The notes under the pieces: generated by a model
Seen by the model: only the letters and a program-made list of their open reading frames with translations
Told to the model about the DNA's origin: nothing
Database searches by the model: none
Assembly: GCA_001302245.1 (NCBI GenBank)
Contig: LGYU01000001.1
Coordinates: 62,001-126,000 of the forward strand
DNA: 64,000 nt
Direction: 5' to 3'
Source of the DNA: Chitinophagaceae bacterium PMP191F
Lineage (GTDB): Bacteria > Bacteroidota > Bacteroidia > Chitinophagales > Chitinophagaceae
Translations under genes and position numbers: made by a program
In this document: in pieces, positions 7,550 to 44,266 of the stretch
How the letters are laid out: every line of letters starts with the position of its first letter
Position numbering within the stretch: position 1 is the stretch's first letter

Positions 7550-8254
7550 CTAAGCGTGCACCAGTTTCTCTGCGTTCAGCTTATCGCTTTCGATAAGGCC
7601 GTCGCGCAGGCGAACGATCCTTTTGGCGTGGTTGGCAATATCTTCTTCATGGGTTACCAGTACTACGGTGTTACCCGCAGCCTGTATTTGTCCGAAGATG
7701 TCCATGATCTCAATTGAGGTTTTGGTATCGAGGTTACCAGTCGGTTCATCGGCCAGTATCAGTGAGGGGTTATTGACCAGTGCCCGTGCAATGGCTACGC
7801 GCTGACATTGCCCGCCTGAAAGCTCATTGGGTTTATGATGACTTCTTGTTTCAAGGCCTACTTTCTGAATTACATCCATAGCCATTTCGGTACGAAGTTT
7901 TTTGGAAATACCGGCGTACACCAGTGGCAGGGCTACATTTTCAAGGGCTGTAAGTCGTGGTAACAGGTTGAACTGCTGAAACACGAACCCTATCTCTTTG
8001 CCACGCACTTCGGCCAGCGCATCATCGGGCATTTTACTTACATCATGGCCATTCAGTACATATTTTCCGGCGGAGGGAGAGTCCAGGCAACCGAGTATAT
8101 TCATGAGCGTGCTTTTACCGGAACCGGAAGGTCCCATCAGGGCAACATATTCATTTTTGAGAATATCCAGGTCAATACCTTTCAGTACGCTCAGTTCCTG
8201 TTTGCCCATGAAGTAGCTTTTACGAATCCCTTCCAGATGAATAATTGGTTGCAT
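7550..8254 (-). CDS. ABC transporter ATP-binding protein, MacB type
   Basis: This 234-residue ATPase has Walker [11 protein letters not shown]-loop [21 protein letters not shown], signature [15 protein letters not shown], Walker [14 protein letters not shown] and H-loop LVTHEEDIA. The [16 protein letters not shown] segment is characteristic of the MacB group, which works with FtsX-like permeases in export or envelope processes. No permease is adjacent. It lies 35 nt after gatC on the same strand and is probably co-transcribed with it; the gatC neighbourhood gives no clear clue to the substrate. Confidence 0.85.
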
Positions 8255-8289
8255 AGAAAAAATTTAGAATCTCCGTTGCCGGCTATTGG

Positions 8290-8580
8290 CTATTTTTTGA
8301 TCACTTTTGGTACTTTAAAAAACACTCCGTCTGATTCGGGAGCGTTTTTCAATCCTTCTTCCCTGCTTACAGAACCCTGCACCACATCTTCCCGTAAAAT
8401 ATTTACATTTTCCGTCATGTGCAACACCGGTTCCACCCCATCAGTGTTGAGTTCATTCAGTTTGTCGACAAGATGGATCATTCGTTGCAGATCTTTCTTA
8501 ATTATTTCTTTTCCGGCGGCATCGAACTGCAAACGGGCCAGGTTGGCAAGATTATCGACCAGTGCGTCATTTACTTCCAT
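8290..8580 (-). CDS. gatC: Asp-tRNA(Asn)/Glu-tRNA(Gln) amidotransferase subunit C
   Basis: GatC stabilises the GatAB amidotransferase that converts mischarged Glu-tRNA(Gln) or Asp-tRNA(Asn). The 96-residue protein shows the family pattern: LANLARLQFD near the N-terminus, a MIHLVDKLNELNTDGVEPVLHM core, and the C-terminal segment ending in GVFFKVPKVIKK. A TATTTTTG box lies just upstream (8586-8593 on the minus strand) but I see no clear TTTG box at the right distance. gatA and gatB are not in the window. Confidence 0.92.
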   Translation of the reverse strand: MEVNDALVDNLANLARLQFDAAGKEIIKKDLQRMIHLVDKLNELNTDGVEPVLHMTENVNILREDVVQGSVSREEGLKNAPESDGVFFKVPKVIKK

Positions 8581-8644
8581 AATAACAAAAATAGCTGAAA
8601 TGGGCAGATATAGATGGTTTTTGTGTGAAAAGGAACGCTAATAC

Positions 8645-8745
8645 GGAGGTTTCGTGTTTTGAGTGTAAGGTTCCGGGTTAAAACGTAAGAGACTGTCTTC
8701 AACCCGAAACGCAAAACCCCGAATCCGAAACCCTAAACTCTTCTT
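8645..8745. repeat. Low-complexity imperfect inverted repeat upstream of trpS
   Basis: The left arm contains GTTTTGAGTGTAAGG and CCGGGTT; the right arm contains AACCCGAAACGCAAAAC and further AACCC/GAAACC words. The arms are imperfect reverse complements. The spacer lies between the divergent gatC and trpS genes, so unlike the others it is not at a 3' end. Confidence 0.6.
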
Positions 8746-8759
8746 ATCTTCGCCCCCTT

Positions 8760-9770
8760 ATGCAAAAGAGTGATAGCAAAGCAATCGTTATGAGCGGCAT
8801 ACGTCCCACCGGTTTTTTACACCTGGGCAATTACTTTGGGGCATTGCGCAATTTTGTTCGTATGCAGGATGAGTTTACATGCTATTTTATGGTAGCTGAT
8901 CTGCATTCATTAACCACCCATCCCGATACCAAAGAGCTAAAAGCAAATGTACACAGGGTATTGGCAGAACACATTGCCTGTGGCATTGATACCGATAAAG
9001 TGGCACTGTACTGTCAGAGCCACATCTATGAAACATCTGAACTATACCTGTACCTGAACATGCTGGCGTATGTAGGTGAACTGGAAAAAACCACCACCTT
9101 TAAAGATAAGGTGCGTTTGCAGCCACAAAATGTGAATGCAGGTCTGTTAACTTATCCTGTATTGCAGGCGGCAGATATTATGCTGCATCGTGCCACACTA
9201 GTGCCTGTTGGTAAGGACCAGGAGCAGCACCTGGAAATGAGCCGCAACTATGCCAACCGTTTTAACCATCGTTACGGTGAAGTGTTTCCCGAACCGCAGG
9301 CGTTCAACTATGGTTCAGAACTGGTAAAAGTGCCCAGCCTGGATGGTGCCGGTAAAATGAGTAAAAGCGAGAACCAGTATGCCACATTATACTTGTCTGA
9401 TGATGATGAACTGATCCGCAAAAAAGTGATGAAGGCAAAAACAGACAGCGGACCTACAGCACCCAACACCCCAAAACCGGATTATATTGATAACATCTTC
9501 CTGCTGATGAAACTGGTAAGTGAGGAAGCGGTGATCAAAAAGTTTGAGGACGATTATAACCGCTGTACTATCCGCTACGGCGATATGAAAAAACAACTGG
9601 CCGAGGATATGGTGAAGTTCATAGCACCTATCCGGGAGAGGGCTGAGGCTATCCGTACCAATGAGCAATACCTGAAAGAGATTATGGAAAAAGGTGCTGA
9701 AAAGGCCCGTAAAAGCGCGCATGCTACCATGGAACTGGTACGTGAAGCAGTAGGGCTGAACTATTATTAA
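8760..9770 (+). CDS. trpS: Tryptophan--tRNA ligase
   Basis: TrpS charges tRNA(Trp) with tryptophan. The 336-residue class I synthetase has the HIGH-type motif as HLGN (TGFLHLGNYFGALRNF), the tryptophan-site segment with LQAADIMLHRATLVPVGKDQEQHLE, and the KMSKS loop in GAGKMSKSENQYATLYL. Length and order are normal for bacterial TrpS. The ATG at 8760 is the first base group after the repeat-rich spacer; no Shine-Dalgarno is visible, as is common in Bacteroidota. No Trp-responsive leader is apparent. Confidence 0.96.
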   Translation: MQKSDSKAIVMSGIRPTGFLHLGNYFGALRNFVRMQDEFTCYFMVADLHSLTTHPDTKELKANVHRVLAEHIACGIDTDKVALYCQSHIYETSELYLYLNMLAYVGELEKTTTFKDKVRLQPQNVNAGLLTYPVLQAADIMLHRATLVPVGKDQEQHLEMSRNYANRFNHRYGEVFPEPQAFNYGSELVKVPSLDGAGKMSKSENQYATLYLSDDDELIRKKVMKAKTDSGPTAPNTPKPDYIDNIFLLMKLVSEEAVIKKFEDDYNRCTIRYGDMKKQLAEDMVKFIAPIRERAEAIRTNEQYLKEIMEKGAEKARKSAHATMELVREAVGLNYY

Positions 9771-11334: not shown

Positions 11335-12939
11335 CTATATTTTTGGAGCAGCCGCCAGTACTTCAGCAGAAACACCGGATGCATACTTTTCAAAATTGTT
11401 TACAAACTGCTGTGCAAGGTTTTGTGCTGCCTTATCGTATGCTGCCTTATTGTTCCAGGTATTGCGTGGGTTCAGTACTTCTGCCGGTACACCGGAACAG
11501 TTTTGTGGTACTTTGAAACCGAATACCGGGTGTGCTTCAAATGTTTCATTTTCCAGTTTACCTTCCAGCGCTGCAGTGATCATTGCACGGGTATAGGCCA
11601 GTTTCATGCGGTTGCCTACGCCATAACCACCACCGGTCCAGCCGGTATTGATCAACCACACTTTTGCATGGTGTTGTTTCAGCTTGGCACCCAGCATAGC
11701 TGCGTATTTACCAGGATGGAGGGGTAAAAAGGGAGCTCCGAAACATGCACTGAAAGTAGATTTGGGTTCTGTAACACCTGCTTCAGTGCCTGCCACCTTG
11801 GCTGTGTAACCGGATATGAACTGGTACATAGCCTGTTCAGGTGTAAGCAATGATACGGGTGGTAATACCCCATATGCATCACAGGTAAGGAAGAAAATGT
11901 TGGCTGGAATACCACCTACTGACGGTTCCAGTGCATTGCTGATAAAATTGAGCGGATAAGATACGCGCGTGTTTTCAGTAATGGATTTATCTGCAAAATT
12001 GATGCTGGTAGTACCAGGATGGAAAACGGTGTTCTCCACCAACGCACCCGGACGGATAGCATTGAAAATTTCAGGTTCTTTTTCAGCACTCAGATCGATA
12101 CATTTTGCATAGCAGCCGCCTTCAAAGTTGAAGATGCCGGTGTCTGTCCAGCCATGCTCATCATCACCAATCAATCCGCGTTGCGGATCTGCACTCAGAG
12201 TGGTTTTACCGGTGCCGCTCAGGCCAAAGAACAGTGCTGTGTCGCCCTGTGGACCTTTATTGGCAGAGCAGTGCATGCTTAATACGCCATTTTCCTGTGG
12301 CAATAAATAGTTCAGTACAGTAAAAATGCCTTTTTTCATTTCACCGGTATAGCCTGAACCTGCAATCAGGATAATGCGATGTTTGAAGCTGATCACTGCT
12401 GCGTTGTGCTGGCGAACGCCACACTCACGCGCATCCAGCATTAAACCGGGGGCAGATAAGATATGCCATTCAGGTTGGAAATCGTCCAGCTCTTCTTCTG
12501 CAGGGCGCAGGAACATGTTGTAAGCAAACAGGTTCAGCGAAGGCCTTTCGTTAATAACGCGGATATTCATGCGGTACTTTTTGTCGGCACATGCATACGC
12601 GTCGCGTACCCATAGTTCGGGCTGCTGGTTCAGGTAATCCGTGATTTTCTGGTGAATGATGTGGAAGTACTTTTCATCCAGCGGAATGTTGAAATCGTTC
12701 CAGTTTACGGAATGTTCTGTTTCAGAATCCTTTACAATAAACTTGTCTTTAGGGCTACGGCCGGTAAATTCGCCGGTTTTGATCACAAGGGCGCCGGTAT
12801 CATTGAGTACTCCTTCCCCTCTCCGCAGCGCATCCTGTACCAGTTCCTCAGGACTTAACTGGTAGTGAATAACGTTGGTAGTACGGAGCCCCAGCCGGGC
12901 CAGATTGTTCGCAGGAATAGCAATAGATTGTACTGACAT
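11335..12939 (-). CDS. pckA: Phosphoenolpyruvate carboxykinase (ATP)
   Basis: PckA interconverts oxaloacetate and phosphoenolpyruvate with ATP, the entry step of gluconeogenesis. The 534-residue protein has the expected motifs: substrate loop GRSPKDKFIV, FAYNMFLRP, the PEPCK-specific P-loop GLSGTGKTTLS, the metal segment IGDDEHGWTD, NFEGGCYAK, and WLINTGWTGGGYGVG. The ATG at 12939 is preferred over a TTG at 12948. A near-consensus promoter lies at 12965-12996. The gene is monocistronic and divergent from the aminopeptidase gene. Confidence 0.97.
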   Translation of the reverse strand: MSVQSIAIPANNLARLGLRTTNVIHYQLSPEELVQDALRRGEGVLNDTGALVIKTGEFTGRSPKDKFIVKDSETEHSVNWNDFNIPLDEKYFHIIHQKITDYLNQQPELWVRDAYACADKKYRMNIRVINERPSLNLFAYNMFLRPAEEELDDFQPEWHILSAPGLMLDARECGVRQHNAAVISFKHRIILIAGSGYTGEMKKGIFTVLNYLLPQENGVLSMHCSANKGPQGDTALFFGLSGTGKTTLSADPQRGLIGDDEHGWTDTGIFNFEGGCYAKCIDLSAEKEPEIFNAIRPGALVENTVFHPGTTSINFADKSITENTRVSYPLNFISNALEPSVGGIPANIFFLTCDAYGVLPPVSLLTPEQAMYQFISGYTAKVAGTEAGVTEPKSTFSACFGAPFLPLHPGKYAAMLGAKLKQHHAKVWLINTGWTGGGYGVGNRMKLAYTRAMITAALEGKLENETFEAHPVFGFKVPQNCSGVPAEVLNPRNTWNNKAAYDKAAQNLAQQFVNNFEKYASGVSAEVLAAAPKI

Positions 12940-31646: not shown

Positions 31647-32975
31647 ATGATAATACTGCCCGGTTTGCAGGAGCGAATGAAACGGTGGCCAGTCTGGTTA
31701 CTGTCATTGTATGCTGCATGCTGTTCATTCGGAGTGTACTTTTGCATGTATGCTTTCCGGAAACCTTTTACCGTGGCAGGTTATGAAGGGATTTATTTTG
31801 CCGGCGCCAGTTACAAGGTATGGCTGGTAATAGCGCAGGTAATGGGGTATATGCTCAGTAAGTTTTACGGTATCCGTTTTATATCAGGCATGCAACCGGA
31901 AAAAAGAGCCAGCATCATTGTAAAGCTCATCCTGTTCTCATGGCTGGCATTACTGCTGTTTGCCATTGTGCCCCCTCCTTACAGTATCGTGTTCTTGTTA
32001 TTAAATGGGTTCCCTTTGGGTATGATATGGGGATTGGTGTTCAGCTATGTGGAAGGAAGAAAGACCACAGAGTTTATGGGTGCAGTGCTGGCCATCAGTT
32101 TTATATTTTCATCCGGGGTAGTAAAAAGTGTTGGTAAACTGGTGATACTGGAAGGTCATTACAGTGAGTGGTGGATGCCGTTTATTACCGGTGGATTGTT
32201 TGTATTACCTATGTTATTGTTTACATGTCTGCTGAATCATTTACCGCCGCCAACTACTGAGGATATACAACTGCGCAGCGTTCGGAAACCTATGACCACA
32301 GCAGAGCGGAGGGATTTTATCATGCAATACCTTCCCGGAATTATATTGATCGTTGCCACGTATGTGCTATTGACCATTCTGCGCGATTTCAGGGATAATT
32401 TTGCCAATGAATTATGGAAAGAACAGGGATATGGTAACCAGGCTGGCATCTTTACGGAAACAGAGATCCCCGTATCACTGGCTGTGTTGTTTTGTATGAG
32501 CCTGCTGATACTGGTCAAAAACAATATACGTGCATTTATGATCAATCACTATATGGTAATTGCAGGATACGCGCTGGCACTGATCTCTACCATATTGTTT
32601 ATGTACCATGAAGCAGGACCTTTTTGGTGGATGGTAATGGTAGGAACCGGTTTGTACCTGAGCTATGTACCCTTCAATGCGTTGTATTTTGAACGGATGA
32701 TAGCCAGTTATCGCATAAAAGGTAATGTAGGTTTTATTATGTACATAGCAGATTCATTCGGATACCTGGGGAGCATACTGGTGCTGCTATGCAAAGAGTT
32801 TACAGGATTGAAAGTATCGTGGACGGGATTCTTTATAAATGCAATACTGGCAGTTTCGATAGCAGGAATTATGGGTACATTGCTGGCAGCGGTTTATTTC
32901 AAGAGAAAATATGAACATGGCCGTGCCGCCAATACTACAGACAATACATTATGGAACGTAAAAGAGCAATTGTAA
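31647..32975 (+). CDS. DUF5690 membrane transporter, MFS-like
   Basis: The 442-residue protein has about 12 membrane segments, starting with WLLSLYAACCSFGVYFCMYA and ending with ILAVSIAGIMGTLLAAVYF, and fits the DUF5690 family found mostly in Bacteroidota. Cytoplasmic loops contain basic clusters (EGRKTTE, FKRKYEHGR). It starts 5 nt after the phosphonatase-like gene and overlaps the next gene by 25 nt. Its likely job in this operon is to import the phosphonate substrate, but that is inferred from context. Confidence 0.85.
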   Translation: MIILPGLQERMKRWPVWLLSLYAACCSFGVYFCMYAFRKPFTVAGYEGIYFAGASYKVWLVIAQVMGYMLSKFYGIRFISGMQPEKRASIIVKLILFSWLALLLFAIVPPPYSIVFLLLNGFPLGMIWGLVFSYVEGRKTTEFMGAVLAISFIFSSGVVKSVGKLVILEGHYSEWWMPFITGGLFVLPMLLFTCLLNHLPPPTTEDIQLRSVRKPMTTAERRDFIMQYLPGIILIVATYVLLTILRDFRDNFANELWKEQGYGNQAGIFTETEIPVSLAVLFCMSLLILVKNNIRAFMINHYMVIAGYALALISTILFMYHEAGPFWWMVMVGTGLYLSYVPFNALYFERMIASYRIKGNVGFIMYIADSFGYLGSILVLLCKEFTGLKVSWTGFFINAILAVSIAGIMGTLLAAVYFKRKYEHGRAANTTDNTLWNVKEQL

Positions 32976-34081
32976 TAGGAGCAGGAATTGTTGGCCTGGC
33001 AATAACAAGAAGTCTGGCAACAAGAGGTTACCAGGTGCATGTGTTTGAGCGGAATGAAAAAGCTGTAAGTGCTTCGGTAAGAAATTTCGGCATGGTATGG
33101 CCGGTTGGGCAACCTGCCGGCATGTTGTATGAAAGAGCATTGCGTTCAAAAGCGATCTGGAAAGAGGTTTGTACGGAAGCCGGTTTGTGGTATGAGGAAA
33201 CCGGTAGCCTGCACCTGGCATATGATGAACTGGAATGGCAGGTGCTGAATGAAATTGCAGCAGCCAATACAGGAATTAGACCAATGATTGCCATTGATGC
33301 GCAGACGGCATTACAACGCAGCGAAGCTATCAATCCGGAAGGATTGAAAGGTGCATTGTGGAGTGCAGATGAAATGATAGTGGAAGCGCGTGTGGCGATA
33401 GAAAAAATACCGGCCTGGTTGCAACAACGGTATGGTATAACTTTTCATTTCAATACAGCAGTAACAGAAATCCGTTACCCGGAGATCATTACCGGAGGAG
33501 GTGAAAGACTAAGTGCTGATGAGATATTTGTATGCGGCGGTGCTGATTTTGAAACGCTGTATCCTGAAGTTTTTGAGGAAAATTATTTTACCAAATGTAA
33601 ACTGCAGATGATGCGCCTGGCCGTACAACCTGATAACTGGCGGATAGGTCCTGCATTGTGCGGTGGTTTATCGCTGGCGCATTACAAAGGATTTGAAGTA
33701 GCAGCTTCATTGCCGGCATTGAAACAACATTTTGAAGCAACGTTGCCCGACTATATACGCTGGGGAATACATGTTATGGTATCGCAGAATGGGGAAGGAG
33801 AACTGACCGTTGGCGACAGTCATGAGTATGGAGGCGTATTTGATCCGTTTGATAAGCATTTCATCAATCAACTGATACTGGATTACCTGAAACGTTTTGC
33901 ACGTTTTAAGAATTGGGATCTTTCACAAAGCTGGCATGGCATCTATCCTAAAAAAACAGATGGCAAAACGGATTTTGTATTTCAACCTGAGCCGGGTGTA
34001 ACCATTGTCAACGGTATGGGAGGTGCGGGTATGACGTTGAGTTTTGGTCTGGCGGAAGAAGTGGTGCAGAGCAATTATTAA
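32951..34081 (+). CDS. FAD-dependent oxidoreductase of phosphonate operons
   Basis: The 376-residue DAO-type oxidoreductase begins with the dinucleotide-binding motif AIVIGAGIVGLAITRSLATRG and contains ASVRNFGMVWPVGQP, typical of the TIGR03364-type family that sits in phosphonate operons. Related enzymes are reported to oxidise 2-aminoethylphosphonate or its N-methyl form to phosphonoacetaldehyde, which the neighbouring HAD hydrolase could cleave. It ends at 34081, overlapping the convergent membrane gene by 4 nt. The exact substrate is not visible in the sequence. Confidence 0.87.
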   Translation: MERKRAIVIGAGIVGLAITRSLATRGYQVHVFERNEKAVSASVRNFGMVWPVGQPAGMLYERALRSKAIWKEVCTEAGLWYEETGSLHLAYDELEWQVLNEIAAANTGIRPMIAIDAQTALQRSEAINPEGLKGALWSADEMIVEARVAIEKIPAWLQQRYGITFHFNTAVTEIRYPEIITGGGERLSADEIFVCGGADFETLYPEVFEENYFTKCKLQMMRLAVQPDNWRIGPALCGGLSLAHYKGFEVAASLPALKQHFEATLPDYIRWGIHVMVSQNGEGELTVGDSHEYGGVFDPFDKHFINQLILDYLKRFARFKNWDLSQSWHGIYPKKTDGKTDFVFQPEPGVTIVNGMGGAGMTLSFGLAEEVVQSNY

Positions 34082-38764: not shown

Positions 38765-40231
38765 ATGAAGAAGGAAGAGGTAGCGTATTTATTTTCATCA
38801 TCCCCCGCCTTGCAAATGTTGCGGTTGCGTAATGCCAACTGGGTATTACCTTTCCTGTATGCTGTATTTAAAGAAGAGAACCGCTTCCTGGTTCCGGAAC
38901 AGCAACTGGTGCAGTTACTGGCAGAAGCGTTGAGTCAGCATACAGAGGGAGTGGAAGACCTGGAAGAGGCGCGTATTGAGTTTGGTGAAGACGAGGAAAG
39001 CCGTAGTCGTAAATATATCATCAGTTGGGTACAGAAACGCCTGCTACAGGATCTGCCCGATGCAGAAGGCAATACACAATATCAGCTAAGCTCACATACC
39101 GAAAAGGTATTTCAATGGATGCAGACCCTGCAATTGCGCCAGTTTGTAGGTACAGAAAGCCGTTTTCGCCTGCTGTTTAATTCACTGCGCGATATTGTAG
39201 AGAATACGGAAGACGACCGGGTAAAGAAACTGGAAATATTAAAGAACCGCCGTGCTGAAATTGACAAGGAGATTAAGGCTATTGAATTGGGTATTGCCCC
39301 GGACAGGTATACGAATGCACAAGTGCAGGAGCGCCTGGAATTGTTTACGCGTTTGTGTTACGAACTGGTAAGTGATTTCCGTGAAGTAGAAGATAATTTT
39401 AAACAGATACACCGGGCTATTGTAGAACAACACACAAAGGCCGAACAGAATAAAGGCGCCATTGTTGGGTTTGCTTTTGAGGCATACGATGCGCTACGCA
39501 ACAGCAACCAGGGCAAAAGTTTTTATGCTTTCTGGGATTTTCTCATTTCCCGCGCAGGACAGGAAGATTGGCGCGAACTGACAGACGGATTATTGGAATT
39601 ATTACAGGACAGGAGTATTGAAGCCGATGAAACCTTTTTGCAGAACATTAAATCCATGTTGTTACAACAGGGTAAAAGTGTGTATGATGCCAATGATAAA
39701 ATGGCGGAGAAACTTAGCCGGATCATTACTGAAAAAGAAATTGCCCGCCACAGAAGATTACGGCAACAGATCAGCAATATCAAAGAGCTGGTGTTTGACC
39801 TGATGGAAGAAGAACATGTTCCCTGCGGCATAGCGATAGGAGAACCGGTAGAAATAAAAATGGCTATGGAGCGCAAACTGGCGACAGAACCCCGTAAAAC
39901 AGCTGCGGCCATTAAACAACCAGTAGCTACCAGTGAGGGCGTGTCCGATCCGGAACGTTTCAGTAAGCTTCTTAACACTTCGCATATTGATAAAAAACGT
40001 TTGTGGCAGAAAGTGGAACAGGTGCTGCAACACAAGCAAACTGCCACACTGAAAGAAATTATTGAAGCCACTGCATTGGAAAACGGTATTGCAGAAATTG
40101 TAACTTATTACGGTTTTCTGCGCGATAAAAGCAGCCGTGTACAGATCATTAAAAATTCAACCGAACACATTGCAATTAATGAGCAGCAAACAAAATTTGT
40201 GGAGGTGCCTTACCTGCTGTTCAGTAAATAA
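38765..40231 (+). CDS. DUF3375 protein, JetA/MksF-like kleisin
   Basis: The 488-residue protein matches DUF3375, the JetA subunit of Wadjet or MksF of the MukB-like condensin. This subunit is the kleisin that links the SMC heads. The visible pattern is an N-terminal winged-helix-like part (MKKEEVAYLFSSSPALQMLRLRNANWVLPFLYAVF), long helical linkers rich in charged residues (about 150-390) and a C-terminal winged-helix region (KRLWQKVEQVLQHKQTATLKEIIEATALE). It lies 8 nt upstream of the DUF4194 gene. The upstream in-frame start at 38705 would lie ahead of the promoter box. Confidence 0.87.
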   Translation: MKKEEVAYLFSSSPALQMLRLRNANWVLPFLYAVFKEENRFLVPEQQLVQLLAEALSQHTEGVEDLEEARIEFGEDEESRSRKYIISWVQKRLLQDLPDAEGNTQYQLSSHTEKVFQWMQTLQLRQFVGTESRFRLLFNSLRDIVENTEDDRVKKLEILKNRRAEIDKEIKAIELGIAPDRYTNAQVQERLELFTRLCYELVSDFREVEDNFKQIHRAIVEQHTKAEQNKGAIVGFAFEAYDALRNSNQGKSFYAFWDFLISRAGQEDWRELTDGLLELLQDRSIEADETFLQNIKSMLLQQGKSVYDANDKMAEKLSRIITEKEIARHRRLRQQISNIKELVFDLMEEEHVPCGIAIGEPVEIKMAMERKLATEPRKTAAAIKQPVATSEGVSDPERFSKLLNTSHIDKKRLWQKVEQVLQHKQTATLKEIIEATALENGIAEIVTYYGFLRDKSSRVQIIKNSTEHIAINEQQTKFVEVPYLLFSK

Positions 40232-40239
40232 TTGAAGCT

Positions 40240-40833
40240 ATGGCGAATAACAGAATATTACCATATACCTCTATATTCATCAAGCTGCTGAAAGGTCCCA
40301 TGGAGTATGTGGAAAAATCATCATGGGAAAAGTTGCTGCAGTATAAAACAGAGCTGACGGCATTTCTGCAGCAATTGGGACTTACCCTAGTGCTGGACGA
40401 GCAGGATGGATATGCCTATATACGACATGCAGGAACAGCCGATGATGAGGAAGAAGGAACAGAAGTAACATGGATGCAGCGTCGTCCGTTGACGTACGAG
40501 GAAAGTATCATGCTGGTGCTGTTGCGCGAGATGATGGCTGAGTTTGAAGTAGGCGAAGCTACCAGCAGGGAACTGATCAAAAAACGTCGGGAAATAAAAG
40601 AATATGCCGAATTGTTCTTTAAAGAAAATGCCAGTCGTGTTAAGTTCCTGAAAGAAATTGACAGGTTGATTGATAAAGCAGAGGAGAATGGCTTTTTAGA
40701 CCGGCATGAAAATCATGAGGTGGCAGATGAACAGAAGTTCAGGATCAAAAAGATCATCAAAGCAAAAGTTGACGGAGAAGTATTAGAACAGTTTAAACAG
40801 CAATTAAGCGAACATGCAGCTCAACGTATTTAG
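40240..40833 (+). CDS. DUF4194 protein, JetB/MksE-like
   Basis: The 197-residue protein matches DUF4194, the JetB subunit (MksE) that binds the kleisin in Wadjet-type complexes. It has a conserved start (ILPYTSIFIKLLKGPMEYVEKSSWEKLLQYKTEL), the central RRPLTYEESIMLVLLREMM and a C-terminal helical part with FLKEIDRLIDKAEENGFL. It begins 8 nt after the DUF3375 gene and overlaps the ATPase gene by 20 nt, so the three are translationally linked. Length is typical. Confidence 0.88.
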   Translation: MANNRILPYTSIFIKLLKGPMEYVEKSSWEKLLQYKTELTAFLQQLGLTLVLDEQDGYAYIRHAGTADDEEEGTEVTWMQRRPLTYEESIMLVLLREMMAEFEVGEATSRELIKKRREIKEYAELFFKENASRVKFLKEIDRLIDKAEENGFLDRHENHEVADEQKFRIKKIIKAKVDGEVLEQFKQQLSEHAAQRI

Positions 40834-43800
40834 TACTGACAGTCAGAAAAGCGGTTTCCGTTTACAATATATCGAAGTATACAACTGGGGTACCTTCGAT
40901 GAACATGTGCACAGTATACGCCCGATGGGAGAAACGAGTTTGCTGACGGGATCAAACGGCAGTGGCAAAACCACTTTTGTTGATGCCCTGCTGACTCTGA
41001 TTGTGCCGGAAAAAAAATACAGGTTTTACAACCAGTCGTCTGGTAGTGAAAAAAAGGGAGACCGTACAGAAGAGAGTTATGTAATGGGTGGTTACGGAAC
41101 CATCAATACCGGTGATAATGGCGCTACCAAAACACTTTACCTGCGTGAAAATAAAGAAGAGGCCTACAGTATTCTGCTGGCCAATTTTGCCAATGAGGCC
41201 GAACAGACCGTTACCCTGATACAGGTGCGGTATTTCAGCAGTGGTGATATGCGCAGGGTATTTGGTGTGGCGCACAAGGCATTGAAGATTGAAGATGATT
41301 TCAAACCATTTGACCTGAACGGCGGTTGGAAAAAACGCATTGACCAGAAATACAACAAGGGCAGCAGGAAGCAGGTAGAGTGGTTTGATGCTGCCAGTAA
41401 ATATGCCCTGCGTATGGTAGATGTGTTAGGTATGCAAAGCATACAGGCACTGAGCCTGTTTAACCAGACCGTGGGTATTAAAGTACTGGGCAACCTGGAT
41501 GATTTTATCCGGCTGCACATGCTGGAGCCACGCAATATGGAAGAGCAGTTCCAGGAGCTGAAAAAACACCTGGGCACCCTGCTGGATGCACAACGAAATA
41601 TTGAAAAAGCAGAAGAGCAGATACGATTACTGCAACCGGTTCAGCAACATTTTGAATCGTTCAACACATTGAAGCAGCAGTTGCACGAAACCAACCGTTA
41701 TCTCAATACAGCTACCATCTGGAACAGCTACGCCAAAAATAGCCTGCTGCAACTGGCGCTGGAAGAAAGCAGCCAGCGTATGAAAGAGCTGGTGCAGAAA
41801 GCTGAGGACGCACGGCAGTTAATTGACGAGCTGATTGAAAAAGAACGTGTGACCAGGAACCAGGTGGAGCAGAATAAGGCCGGTCAGCGATTGCAGCAAC
41901 TGGAAAAAGACCTGCAGCAATTGCAGCACAAGCACAAAGAAGTGGTACAGAATCTGGAATTGTTTACCGAATGGTGTACCACGCTGCATATTGAAGAAAA
42001 AAGCCTGGGTGATGAGGCAACTTATGGTCGTGTAATTAAAGAAATCAGCCGTATTGCACACCGCCTGGAACGTGAACAACGTTTGAATGAAGATGATGAG
42101 TTTGATGCGAAGAACAGCAGATCAAAAGCTGATGGCGAACGGCAACGCCTGGAAGATGAACTGAATTCGTTGCTGCAAAGCAAAAATAATATCCCGGGTC
42201 ACCTGGTGAACCTGCGCAAAGATATCTGTACAGCATTGAAGATCGATACCAACGATCTGCCGTATGCCGGTGAATTGATGCAGGTCAAATCTGAAGAACT
42301 GCACTGGCAACCAGCTATTGAAAAACTACTGTATGGATTTTCACTGCGGTTGCTGATACCGGATAAGCATTATAAAAAAGTAACCCGCTATGTAAATAAT
42401 ACCAGCCTGGGAGCCAGGTTGGTATACTATCGTGTAAATGACCTGGCGTTGGATCTGCGGGCTGATGAGGACACTGTATTTGAAAAACTGGACTTTCACC
42501 CAGATCACCCGTTGAGTCACTGGGTACAGCAACAGGTGATACAGCAGTTCAATTACAGTTGTGTGGATGATGAAAAAGTGTTTGAACGGTTTGATAAAGC
42601 GATCACCATCAACGGGCTGATCAAGAACCGCGACCGTCATGAAAAAGATGACAGACCCGGAAAGAGTGATGCCAGCCGCTATGTGATGGGATGGAATAAT
42701 GAGAAAAAGAAAGAAATGCTGATCAAACGCCGTAATGCAGTGCATGACGAAATAACACAGGCTGATGAAATATTGCAGCGCTGTAAAAGCCGTGCGGCAC
42801 GTTTGCAGAAGCAGTTCTATGCATTTACCCGTGTAAAAGAGCACCAGGGATTTTCGGAAATTGATATTGCTTCTGTACAACGTTCTATCCGGAAAACAGA
42901 AGAACAGATCAGTGAATTGCGTGAAAGCAATAACCAGTTAAAATCACTGACGCAGCAACTGGATACAGTGTATCAGCAACGTGTACAGGCAGAAGAAGAA
43001 CGTGAGCGACTGGCCGGTGAGCGGATGTTGTTGCAGAACAACATTGAAACCCGTACACAGCAGCAGAAAGAGCTGCAGCAATTATTGCAGCACGTAACTG
43101 AGGCCGATAAAGACGAACTATTACAGTTCCAGCAACAGCATGCTGATGAATTGCTGGCTGTAACACTGGATACCATTGATGGCATTTACCAATCGTTCCG
43201 GCAGAAAACAGAAAAGAAAGCGCATGATCTGCAGGAAGCGGTGTATAAAGAAGAAACATTGTTGAACCGCAGTATCAATCGTATTAAAAATCCATCAGCA
43301 GAAGTATTGCAACGATTCCCCGACTGGATGGGCGATGTACAACAACTACCGGATGAAGCTATGCATGCGGCGGAATACAAAGAATGGCTGGATAAATTAA
43401 GTACTGAGAACCTGCCCAGGTTCAGGAAAGATTTTGAAAGTTATATCAACGTCACCATTACGTATAAGATCGGCGGATTGAACGAAGAAATGGAAAGATG
43501 GGAGCGTGAGATCAGTAACAGCATCCTGAAGCTGAACCAATCACTGGGTGCTATTAACTTTAACCGTTTGCCTGATACTTATATCCAGTTGGGCAGACGT
43601 CCGGTACCGGATGCTACGATCAAGGAATTCCGCACACGCTTGCTGGATGCATTGCCGCAGGCAGCCAACTGGCAGCAAAGTAGTTTTGAAGAAAAGGCAC
43701 AGCATTTCCGGCAGAAGGTACAACCGCTGATCGCCAGTCTGGATGAAAGCGATGCTTATCGCAACCGTGTAATGGATGTGCGCAACTGGTTTGAGTTCTG

Positions 43801-44212
43801 GGCTGATGAAAAGTATCGTAACACCAACGAATTGAAAAAAACATACCGGCAGATGGGACAGTTATCGGGTGGTGAAAAGGCACAGCTTACCTATACTATT
43901 TTGTGTAGCGCCATTGCTTACCAGTTTGGTATTACCCGCGAAGGCAAGAATAGCAAGAGTCTTCGTTTTATTGCAGTGGATGAGAGCTTCAGTAACCAGG
44001 ATGAAGAAAAAGCCACTTACCTGATGGAGCTGTGTAAGCAACTACACCTGCAATTGCTGGTGGTAACGCCCAGCGATAAGATCCAGATCGTACAGAATTA
44101 CATTGCGCATGTACACCTGGCGCAACGTGTAAATAACCGCCACAGCGTAATGTACAATATGACCATTAAAGAACTGCAGGAAAAGATAGCAGAACCGGAA
44201 ATGGCTAACTAA
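40814..44212 (+). CDS. MukB/SbcC-like SMC ATPase, JetC/MksB type
   Basis: The 1132-residue protein is an SMC-like ATPase. It has Walker A GSNGSGKTT at 46-54, an N-terminal motif set like JetC (YIEVYNWGTFDEHV), long coiled coils (about 270-480 and 650-860) around a hinge-like globular region, the ABC signature LSGGEK at 1017-1022, and Walker B with D1056-E1057 in IAVDESFSN. It would drive ATP-dependent DNA loop extrusion with the DUF3375 and DUF4194 subunits. A strong terminator follows at 44225. There is no JetD gene next to it. Confidence 0.92.
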   Translation: MQLNVFSTDSQKSGFRLQYIEVYNWGTFDEHVHSIRPMGETSLLTGSNGSGKTTFVDALLTLIVPEKKYRFYNQSSGSEKKGDRTEESYVMGGYGTINTGDNGATKTLYLRENKEEAYSILLANFANEAEQTVTLIQVRYFSSGDMRRVFGVAHKALKIEDDFKPFDLNGGWKKRIDQKYNKGSRKQVEWFDAASKYALRMVDVLGMQSIQALSLFNQTVGIKVLGNLDDFIRLHMLEPRNMEEQFQELKKHLGTLLDAQRNIEKAEEQIRLLQPVQQHFESFNTLKQQLHETNRYLNTATIWNSYAKNSLLQLALEESSQRMKELVQKAEDARQLIDELIEKERVTRNQVEQNKAGQRLQQLEKDLQQLQHKHKEVVQNLELFTEWCTTLHIEEKSLGDEATYGRVIKEISRIAHRLEREQRLNEDDEFDAKNSRSKADGERQRLEDELNSLLQSKNNIPGHLVNLRKDICTALKIDTNDLPYAGELMQVKSEELHWQPAIEKLLYGFSLRLLIPDKHYKKVTRYVNNTSLGARLVYYRVNDLALDLRADEDTVFEKLDFHPDHPLSHWVQQQVIQQFNYSCVDDEKVFERFDKAITINGLIKNRDRHEKDDRPGKSDASRYVMGWNNEKKKEMLIKRRNAVHDEITQADEILQRCKSRAARLQKQFYAFTRVKEHQGFSEIDIASVQRSIRKTEEQISELRESNNQLKSLTQQLDTVYQQRVQAEEERERLAGERMLLQNNIETRTQQQKELQQLLQHVTEADKDELLQFQQQHADELLAVTLDTIDGIYQSFRQKTEKKAHDLQEAVYKEETLLNRSINRIKNPSAEVLQRFPDWMGDVQQLPDEAMHAAEYKEWLDKLSTENLPRFRKDFESYINVTITYKIGGLNEEMERWEREISNSILKLNQSLGAINFNRLPDTYIQLGRRPVPDATIKEFRTRLLDALPQAANWQQSSFEEKAQHFRQKVQPLIASLDESDAYRNRVMDVRNWFEFWADEKYRNTNELKKTYRQMGQLSGGEKAQLTYTILCSAIAYQFGITREGKNSKSLRFIAVDESFSNQDEEKATYLMELCKQLHLQLLVVTPSDKIQIVQNYIAHVHLAQRVNNRHSVMYNMTIKELQEKIAEPEMAN

Positions 44213-44224
44213 TATCTTAATACC

Positions 44225-44266
44225 AGGGGCCGGTATCCTTTTAAAAGGGTGCCGGCCCCTTTTTTA
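44225..44266 (+). terminator. Terminator after the Jet-like operon
   Basis: AGGGGCCGG pairs with CCGGCCCCT, with a further inner CC/GG pairing, ending in TTTTTT. It closes the three-gene transcript. Confidence 0.9.

What the first reader, a model, noticed from the sequence alone, without database searches (positions are those of the whole stretch)
38765..44212. JetABC/MksFEB-type operon without a JetD nuclease gene
The three subunits (DUF3375, DUF4194, MukB-like ATPase) form a tight operon with 8-nt and overlapping junctions, closed by a terminator at 44225. Wadjet anti-plasmid systems normally carry a fourth gene, JetD/MksG, with a Toprim-type nuclease. None lies within about 4 kb on either side, where the genes are unrelated. 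This may be a condensin used in chromosome organisation, a Wadjet whose nuclease is elsewhere, or one that uses a different effector. The ATPase motifs (Walker A, LSGGEK, DE) look intact, so a dead relic is less likely.
Basis: partly seen in the sequence, partly recalled or inferred. Interest (0 to 1): 0.78.

Follow-up and report, generated by a model that had tools for sequence, protein, structure and literature searches.

The report
Wadjet motor that lost its nuclease
This bacterium keeps the three motor genes of a plasmid-destroying machine but not its DNA-cutting gene, and many relatives have lost the cutter separately while keeping the motor in good repair, which suggests that the motor now does another job, most likely organising the chromosome.

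Summary
JetA (38765-40231), JetB (40240-40833) and JetC (40814-44212) form an intact type I Wadjet/MksFEB operon closed by a strong terminator at 44225. No JetD was found nearby or in the rest of this near-complete genome. Smc and ScpB are present. Of 77 related loci (capped scan), 55 lack an intact adjacent JetD, 18 have one, 4 are undecided. The nuclease-less state is scattered over the JetC tree: 14 changes, 11 forced, or 16-20 losses if JetD is ancestral. One relative keeps a JetD stub, another shows a clean 1.2-kb deletion. JetABC stays under strong purifying selection (median dN/dS 0.027), and no shared replacement effector follows JetC. In the genus of Chitinophaga tropicalis, 57 of 79 genomes carry a JetD-less JetABC of one of two lineages, never both, mostly with conserved neighbours. 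Best reading: a Wadjet motor repeatedly disarmed and kept for a chromosomal, condensin-like role, as proposed for Pseudomonas MksBEF. The function is inferred, not shown.

The parts
38765..40231 (+). JetA/MksF kleisin (DUF3375), 488 aa
   Evidence: Pfam PF11855 304 bits; PADLOC JetA1 633 bits; matches solved JetA chains 8dk1 (5e-13) and 8as8
40240..40833 (+). JetB/MksE KITE protein (DUF4194), 197 aa; 8 nt after JetA
   Evidence: Pfam PF13835 132 bits and PF21980 MksE 40 bits; PADLOC JetB1; weak match to solved JetB chains, E 0.004
40814..44212 (+). JetC/MksB SMC-like ATPase, 1132 aa; overlaps JetB by 20 nt
   Evidence: PADLOC JetC1 1118 bits; solved JetC chains 8dk2 (6e-57) and 8as8 (4e-48); Walker A, LSGGEK and Walker B in the translation
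44225..44260 (+). intrinsic terminator closing the operon, near the place where JetD starts in JetD-bearing relatives
   Evidence: 16-pair stem, 10 G-C pairs, T tail; JetD position in relatives

Best explanation
The operon encodes an intact ATP-driven SMC motor of type I Wadjet descent (kleisin JetA, KITE JetB, SMC JetC) that has lost its nuclease JetD. It most likely still loads on DNA and extrudes loops, but cannot cut; it probably now serves as an accessory chromosomal condensin beside Smc-ScpAB, as MksBEF does in Pseudomonas aeruginosa. Shown here: intact genes, no JetD found in the genome, repeated change of the JetD state in relatives with JetABC kept, two direct cases of loss, and strong purifying selection on JetABC in lineages without JetD. 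Inferred from published Wadjet biochemistry: loop extrusion without cleavage. Inferred only: the role in chromosome organisation or segregation.
For: No JetD in the genome; Smc and ScpB present. 55 of 77 related loci lack an intact adjacent JetD. Of 50 genomes searched whole (48 JetD-less loci, the stub locus L061 and L043 of unknown state), 41 have no JetD anywhere. JetD-less copies are not one clade: 14 changes, 11 forced by well-supported branches; 16 losses if JetD is ancestral and weak branches are collapsed, 20 if not; one-clade tree rejected, p-AU 1.3e-60. Loss is seen directly as an uninterrupted 27-residue JetD stub after JetC in L061 and as a clean deletion in L097 against L057 at about 91% DNA identity. 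JetABC dN/dS median 0.027 (36 comparisons in 13 pairs, 8 of them with both loci JetD-less), flanking genes 0.055 (99), JetD 0.118 (3, one clade). 98.7-98.8% of columns invariant in JetD-bearing loci are kept by the JetD-less lineages in each of JetA, JetB and JetC. In one genus of 79 genomes, 57 have a JetD-less JetABC, 28 of lineage A and 29 of lineage C, none with both; 27 of 29 lineage C loci share the same three neighbour families and 21 of 28 lineage A loci share two of their own. 56 of these 57 have all three ATPase motifs.
Against: Nothing here shows a chromosomal function. 18 of 79 genomes of that genus have no JetA, and only 41 of 195 in the family sample have it, so it is not essential. 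No residues were found that change with JetD loss beyond chance: 7 JetC columns against a permuted mean of 10. JetD can be unlinked: one relative has JetABC and a JetD 74 kb apart, the JetD being 60% identical to that of another relative, so a remote partner exists elsewhere in the family though none was found here. JetD and JetC trees disagree in places, mostly on weak branches, and one close pair has very different JetD alleles (dS 3.7 against 0.69 for JetC), so some JetD genes were probably regained or swapped. Lineage C dN/dS (0.056) is nearer to its flanks (0.073) and above its neighbours cydAB (0.034).
Confidence: 0.6

Rival explanations
1. JetABC alone still works in defence without cutting: it extrudes and compacts small circular DNA and silences or blocks it, in the manner proposed for Smc5/6 on viral circles.
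For: JetABC is held to be the size- and shape-sensing part of Wadjet, and Smc5/6 compaction of circles is described in the review PMC10586767 (passages). The motor genes are intact and selected.
Against: Conserved neighbours across species and one JetD-less copy per genome look unlike a mobile defence gene. A plasmid-replication marker (PF01051) was too rare to test any link: 4 of 195 genomes.
Confidence: 0.15
2. A nuclease encoded elsewhere (an unlinked JetD or an unrelated enzyme) is used in trans, so the system is still an anti-plasmid weapon.
For: Unlinked, full-length JetD genes occur: L148 is 74 kb from the JetABC of the same genome (L147), and L188 stands alone in a genome with a JetD-less JetABC.
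Against: No JetD by Pfam model or by a five-sequence model in this genome. 41 of 50 genomes searched have none. Of the 9 that do, 7 have it beside a second, divergent JetC (JetA also seen in 6), 1 on a short contig, and 1 is a weak match without jet genes near. An unrelated nuclease was not excluded.
Confidence: 0.12
3. A decaying Wadjet, disarmed, that has not yet lost its remaining genes.
For: Single recent losses exist (L097), and 3 of 55 JetD-less loci have frame-broken JetC (L107, L114, L118), although these may be assembly errors.
Against: 50 of 55 and 56 of 57 JetD-less JetC copies have all ATPase motifs. dN/dS is as low in JetD-less pairs as in JetD-bearing ones (0.00-0.09 for JetA, JetB and JetC in all pairs where it could be computed). 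One clade of 16 rows (mostly Chitinophaga) and one of 10 (mostly Niastella and Longitalea, one of unknown state) have no JetD.
Confidence: 0.06
4. Three genes are the ancestral state in this family and JetD was gained many times.
For: JetD evolves faster, is sometimes unlinked and at least once looks replaced by a different allele.
Against: The distant relatives used as outgroup carry JetD. JetD follows JetC directly in 12 of 16 JetD-bearing loci, in 8 of them overlapping its end as the frames were called, in well separated lineages. A stub and a clean deletion show loss.
Confidence: 0.07

Closest known systems
Type I Wadjet (JetABCD; E. coli GF4-3, P. aeruginosa PA14, MksBEFG of C. glutamicum)
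   Same: Same three subunits, order A-B-C, intact ATPase motifs; JetC matches solved JetC chains
   Different: No JetD/MksG nuclease found in the operon or the genome, so plasmid cleavage as known is not expected
MksBEF condensin of Pseudomonas aeruginosa
   Same: Three genes without the nuclease, beside Smc-ScpAB. [quoted passage not shown] its role in chromosome segregation is in PMC7485682 (passages)
   Different: Different bacterial phylum. In Chitinophagaceae the JetD state changed many times, with JetD-bearing and JetD-less close relatives side by side. Direct sequence relation to P. aeruginosa MksB was not tested
MukBEF
   Same: SMC, kleisin and KITE with no nuclease; chromosome organiser
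   Different: Only a marginal sequence match (1qhl MukB, E 0.68); this genome has Smc, which MukBEF is thought to have replaced (PMC10586767)
MksB of Borrelia burgdorferi
   Same: SMC-like MksB that promotes long-range contacts on the chromosome by Hi-C (PMC10406323, passages)
   Different: There MksE and MksF are missing too; here the full motor complex is kept

Membership tests
Wadjet type I (anti-plasmid system) | JetA with DUF3375 | tested here: met
   PF11855 304 bits, PADLOC JetA1
Wadjet type I (anti-plasmid system) | JetB with DUF4194 | tested here: met
   PF13835 132 bits, PADLOC JetB1
Wadjet type I (anti-plasmid system) | JetC MukB-like ATPase with intact ATPase motifs | tested here: met
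   PADLOC JetC1 1118 bits; motifs in the translation
Wadjet type I (anti-plasmid system) | JetD Toprim nuclease | tested here: not met
   No PF09983 and no match to a five-JetD model in the own genome
Wadjet type I (anti-plasmid system) | Cleaves or restricts circular plasmids | not testable with these tools
   Needs bench work
MksBEF condensin without nuclease | mksF-E-B order, MksE family match, no MksG | tested here: met
   Order; PF21980 MksE above cut-off; no PF09983
MksBEF condensin without nuclease | Coexists with another condensin | tested here: met
   Smc 1012 bits, ScpB 157 bits; ScpA not searched
MksBEF condensin without nuclease | Acts on chromosome structure or segregation | not testable with these tools
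   No expression, Hi-C or mutant data
MksBEF condensin without nuclease | Orthology with P. aeruginosa MksB | not tested
   That sequence was not fetched; the trees here hold only loci of the window's family and close kin

The most novel reading that the evidence does not exclude
In Chitinophagaceae the JetABC motor has a housekeeping role on the chromosome whether or not JetD is present, and JetD is a fast-evolving, swappable and occasionally unlinked weapon that is attached to it or dropped from it again and again. 'Wadjet' here would be a resident condensin that is sometimes armed, not a defence system that is sometimes broken, and two JetD-less lineages of it would stand in for each other in one genus.
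Probability: 0.35. Interest if true: 0.75.

Novelty: new variant of a known kind. Interest (0 to 1): 0.6.

Why it matters
How an SMC complex moves between immunity and chromosome care is an open question. A 2023 review (PMC10586767, passages) suggests that P. [quoted passage not shown] This family offers many separate changes of the JetD state, at least one of them recent, with JetD-bearing and JetD-less sisters (L057 and L097). That turns the question into an experiment: compare chromosome maps and plasmid restriction in natural pairs, and ask whether supplying JetD re-arms a disarmed motor. No report of recurrent JetD loss showed up in the listings and passages that I saw; the library lacks most subscription journals, and I did not read every listed paper.

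Tried and rejected
JetD elsewhere in the genome: not found.

Different effector beside JetC: the first gene after JetC in the 55 JetD-less loci falls into 32 families, on JetC's strand in 28 loci and opposite in 27. One member of each was scanned with Pfam: 24 have a match at E<=0.001 and 8 families (14 loci) none. Matches are ordinary (glycosyltransferase, alcohol dehydrogenase, peroxiredoxin, sulfate permease and the like). Two touch nucleic acids: an 87-aa RNase_T exonuclease fragment in one frame-broken locus (L107) and an HhH-GPD repair glycosylase on the other strand in L109. The commonest same-strand follower (235-253 aa, 7 JetD-less loci and one of unknown state) has no Pfam match and looks secreted by eye; it cannot be ruled out as an effector in that clade. 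Genes further off were not scanned.

Loss of a JetD-docking motif: the review mentions an IFDR motif at the JetB N-terminus. The JetB N-termini of JetD-bearing and JetD-less loci are alike by eye. A scan for columns that change with JetD loss found 4 in JetA, 0 in JetB and 7 in JetC. For JetC, 203 of 300 label permutations gave at least 7 (mean 10.1). Five of the seven lie in residues 440-650, the presumed hinge region (Fisher p 0.002, range chosen after seeing the hits; reached by 25 of 300 permutations). I count this as no signal.

Plasmid carriage: PF01051 in 4 of 195 genomes, too rare to test.

Mobility: the window's JetC has matches in 16 plasmid records and 1 phage record, all under 60% identity.

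Rows dropped or caveats: of 80 available JetC rows 5 were left out of the main tree (L107, L112, L114, L115, L118: short or with stops). Four loci of unknown JetD state were not counted. dN/dS values with dS <=0.05 or >2.5 (>2.0) were dropped. The Fisher value for lineages A and C never co-occurring (6e-8) is not corrected for relatedness and may only reflect two sub-clades of the genus. Some unnamed G genomes are the same records as named loci (contig lengths agree), so the samples overlap. The scan was capped: 81 relatives, best 80 kept, 77 distinct.

Full report
WHAT IS THERE. Three genes on the + strand, JetA 38765-40231, JetB 40240-40833 and JetC 40814-44212, with an 8-nt gap and a 20-nt overlap. 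They match DUF3375, DUF4194/MksE and the SbcC/MukB-like ATPase domains in Pfam and JetA1, JetB1 and JetC1 in PADLOC. The solved proteins most like them are Wadjet subunits: 8dk2 and 8as8 for JetC, 8dk1 for JetA, and weakly 9qxt/8as8 for JetB. A strong terminator starts 12 bases after JetC.

NO JetD FOUND IN THIS GENOME. The genome is 6.45 Mb, 66 contigs, listed as 99.99% complete. PF09983 (JetD C-terminal domain) has no match, nor has a model built from five relatives' JetD proteins at E<=10 (no positive control in that call). The Pfam model works in this family: in a set of 59 genomes (the own one and 58 relatives) 6 ring, five of them next to JetC and the sixth (G023) on a short contig while another contig of that genome ends inside JetD. 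No JetD remnant was seen around the window's operon (best tblastn E 0.22). Smc and ScpB are present.

WHOSE GENOME. This is an inference from contig lengths.

THE THREE-GENE FORM IS COMMON IN RELATIVES. In the 59 genomes, 10 hold 12 near-full-length JetC copies; 6 copies have JetD and 6 (the window's included) do not, and two genomes (G023, G035) have one of each. A capped scan of named genomes found 77 related loci, named mostly as Chitinophagaceae genera or unclassified Bacteroidota. A full JetD follows JetC in 16, two more are cut by a contig end inside JetD, one keeps only a stub, 54 have none and 4 cannot be told. I count 18 with, 55 without and 4 unknown. Of 50 of these genomes searched whole (48 with JetD-less loci, the stub locus and one of unknown state), 41 have no JetD anywhere. 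In the other 9, JetD lies beside a second, divergent JetC in 7 (JetA seen in 6), on a short contig in 1, and in 1 the match is weak (E 6e-5) with no jet gene near. In an even sample of 195 family genomes, own one included, JetA is in 41 and JetD in 23; 22 have both and 19 have JetA without JetD. Of these 19, 17 show JetA, JetB and JetC and no JetD in the stretch fetched (one has only 0.45 kb after JetC); in G200 JetC is cut by a contig end and G262 is a fragment.

MANY CHANGES, NOT ONE. On a tree of 75 JetC proteins the JetD label changes at least 14 times, 11 of them forced by well-supported branches. With JetD taken as ancestral this is 20 losses on the full tree and 16 with weak branches collapsed; the tree that holds the JetD-less rows together is rejected (p-AU 1.3e-60). 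The window's JetC falls beside a JetD-bearing locus of a Puia bin (L099; support 88, not starred). Direct signs of loss: L061 (Niabella bin) has 27 uninterrupted residues of the JetD C-terminus right after JetC. L097 lacks the JetD that L057 has, in DNA that is otherwise about 91% identical, with about 46 bp in place of 1.2 kb. L073 has 3.5 kb of other DNA where its relative L076 has JetD. JetD is less constrained than JetABC and sometimes exchanged: in the Pinibacter pair L051/L057 JetC has dS 0.69 but JetD 3.7. In one relative an intact JetD sits 74 kb from JetABC (G191, loci L147 and L148), and in another it stands alone on a different contig (G279, L188); both have the two JetD domains. 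Some regain or swapping is therefore likely, and the exact number of losses is uncertain.

THE MOTOR IS KEPT. 50 of 55 JetD-less JetC copies have Walker A, signature and Walker B; two of the other five are cut by contig ends (L103, L115) and three have broken frames (L107, L114, L118), where assembly errors are possible. Over 13 close pairs, dN/dS is 0.027 (median of 36 comparisons) for JetABC, 0.055 (99) for neighbouring genes and 0.118 (3, one clade) for JetD; pairs of JetD-less loci are as low as JetD-bearing pairs. Of columns invariant in JetD-bearing loci, 98.7-98.8% are kept by JetD-less lineages in each of the three proteins.

COMMON IN ONE GENUS, TWICE OVER. In the genus of Chitinophaga tropicalis, JetA is in 61 of 79 genomes and JetD in 12, two of them weak matches (E 7e-5) without jet genes near. 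The main JetA locus of all 61 was fetched and typed. 57 have a JetD-less JetABC: 28 of the window's lineage (A) and 29 of a second lineage (C, about 35% identical in JetC), never both; 5 of these 57 also have a separate JetD-bearing system, and 4 further genomes have only JetD-bearing loci. One of the 57 (G330, 65% complete) has a broken JetC. In lineage C, cydA, cydB and a bestrophin gene each occur in 28 of 29 loci, all three in 27; in lineage A, 21 of 28 loci share two neighbours of their own. Lineage C dN/dS is 0.056 over 10 pairs, its flanks 0.073, cydAB alone 0.034. The sister group of lineage C in the tree has JetD in 7 of 8 rows, the eighth being cut by a contig end. This looks like vertical inheritance at fixed places.

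NO SHARED SUBSTITUTE EFFECTOR. The first genes after JetC in the 55 JetD-less loci fall into 32 families; 24 match ordinary Pfam families and 8 have no match; the two nucleic-acid enzymes occur in one locus each as first gene. One unmatched family follows JetC in 7 JetD-less loci of one clade.

HOW IT LIKELY WORKS. Published biochemistry (review PMC10586767, passages): JetABC is the sensor and proposed loop-extruding part, JetD the cutter, and cleavage needs ATP and the JetC ATPase. PMC12647877 (passages) describes extrusion by JetABC followed by JetD activation. Without JetD the motor should still extrude but not cut. In P. [quoted passage not shown] PMC7485682, passages). The simplest reading is the same fate here, reached many times. 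This last step is inference.

JUDGEMENT. The three-gene form as such is known from Pseudomonas. The recurrence, the JetD-bearing and JetD-less sisters, and the two JetD-less lineages in one genus did not appear in the listings and passages seen.

Noticed in passing
L147 and L148 (G191, 784 kb and 858 kb): JetABC and a full-length JetD (DUF3322 plus JetD_C) lie 74 kb apart in one genome; JetD sits among unrelated genes.
   Followed up: partly
L188 (G279), 7897-9087: A lone full-length JetD gene with no other jet gene in the 17-kb stretch, in a genome with a JetD-less JetABC of lineage C.
   Followed up: partly
L145 and L146 (G152): About 12.6 kb lies between JetB and JetC-JetD of a divergent Jet locus; the nature of the insert was not examined.
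   Followed up: no
L062, L093, L100 (two genes) and L084 (one) between JetC and JetD: Unrelated genes sit between JetC and JetD in the Terrimonas-type clade (one resembles a dihydrofolate-reductase-type protein by eye).
   Followed up: no
L107, L114, L118: JetC with broken frames (two are in CP0791xx records); decay and sequencing error were not told apart.
   Followed up: no
L057 around 12598-12640 and L097 around 11441: A short repeat resembling CACTAAGGCACTAAGG lies just after the JetD site; BLAST showed short repeats of this kind at other places in these loci. It may help deletion or exchange of JetD.
   Followed up: no
L064: A record named Beijerinckiaceae bacterium holds a JetABC that groups with Chitinophagaceae; probably a mislabelled or contaminated bin.
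   Followed up: no
L067 11453-12157 and 7 further loci: A 235-253 aa protein of no Pfam family, secreted-looking by eye, follows JetC on the same strand in one clade (7 JetD-less loci, 1 of unknown state).
   Followed up: partly
window 32951-34081: FAD-dependent oxidoreductase of TIGR03364 (HpnW), above cut-off (418 bits).
   Followed up: no
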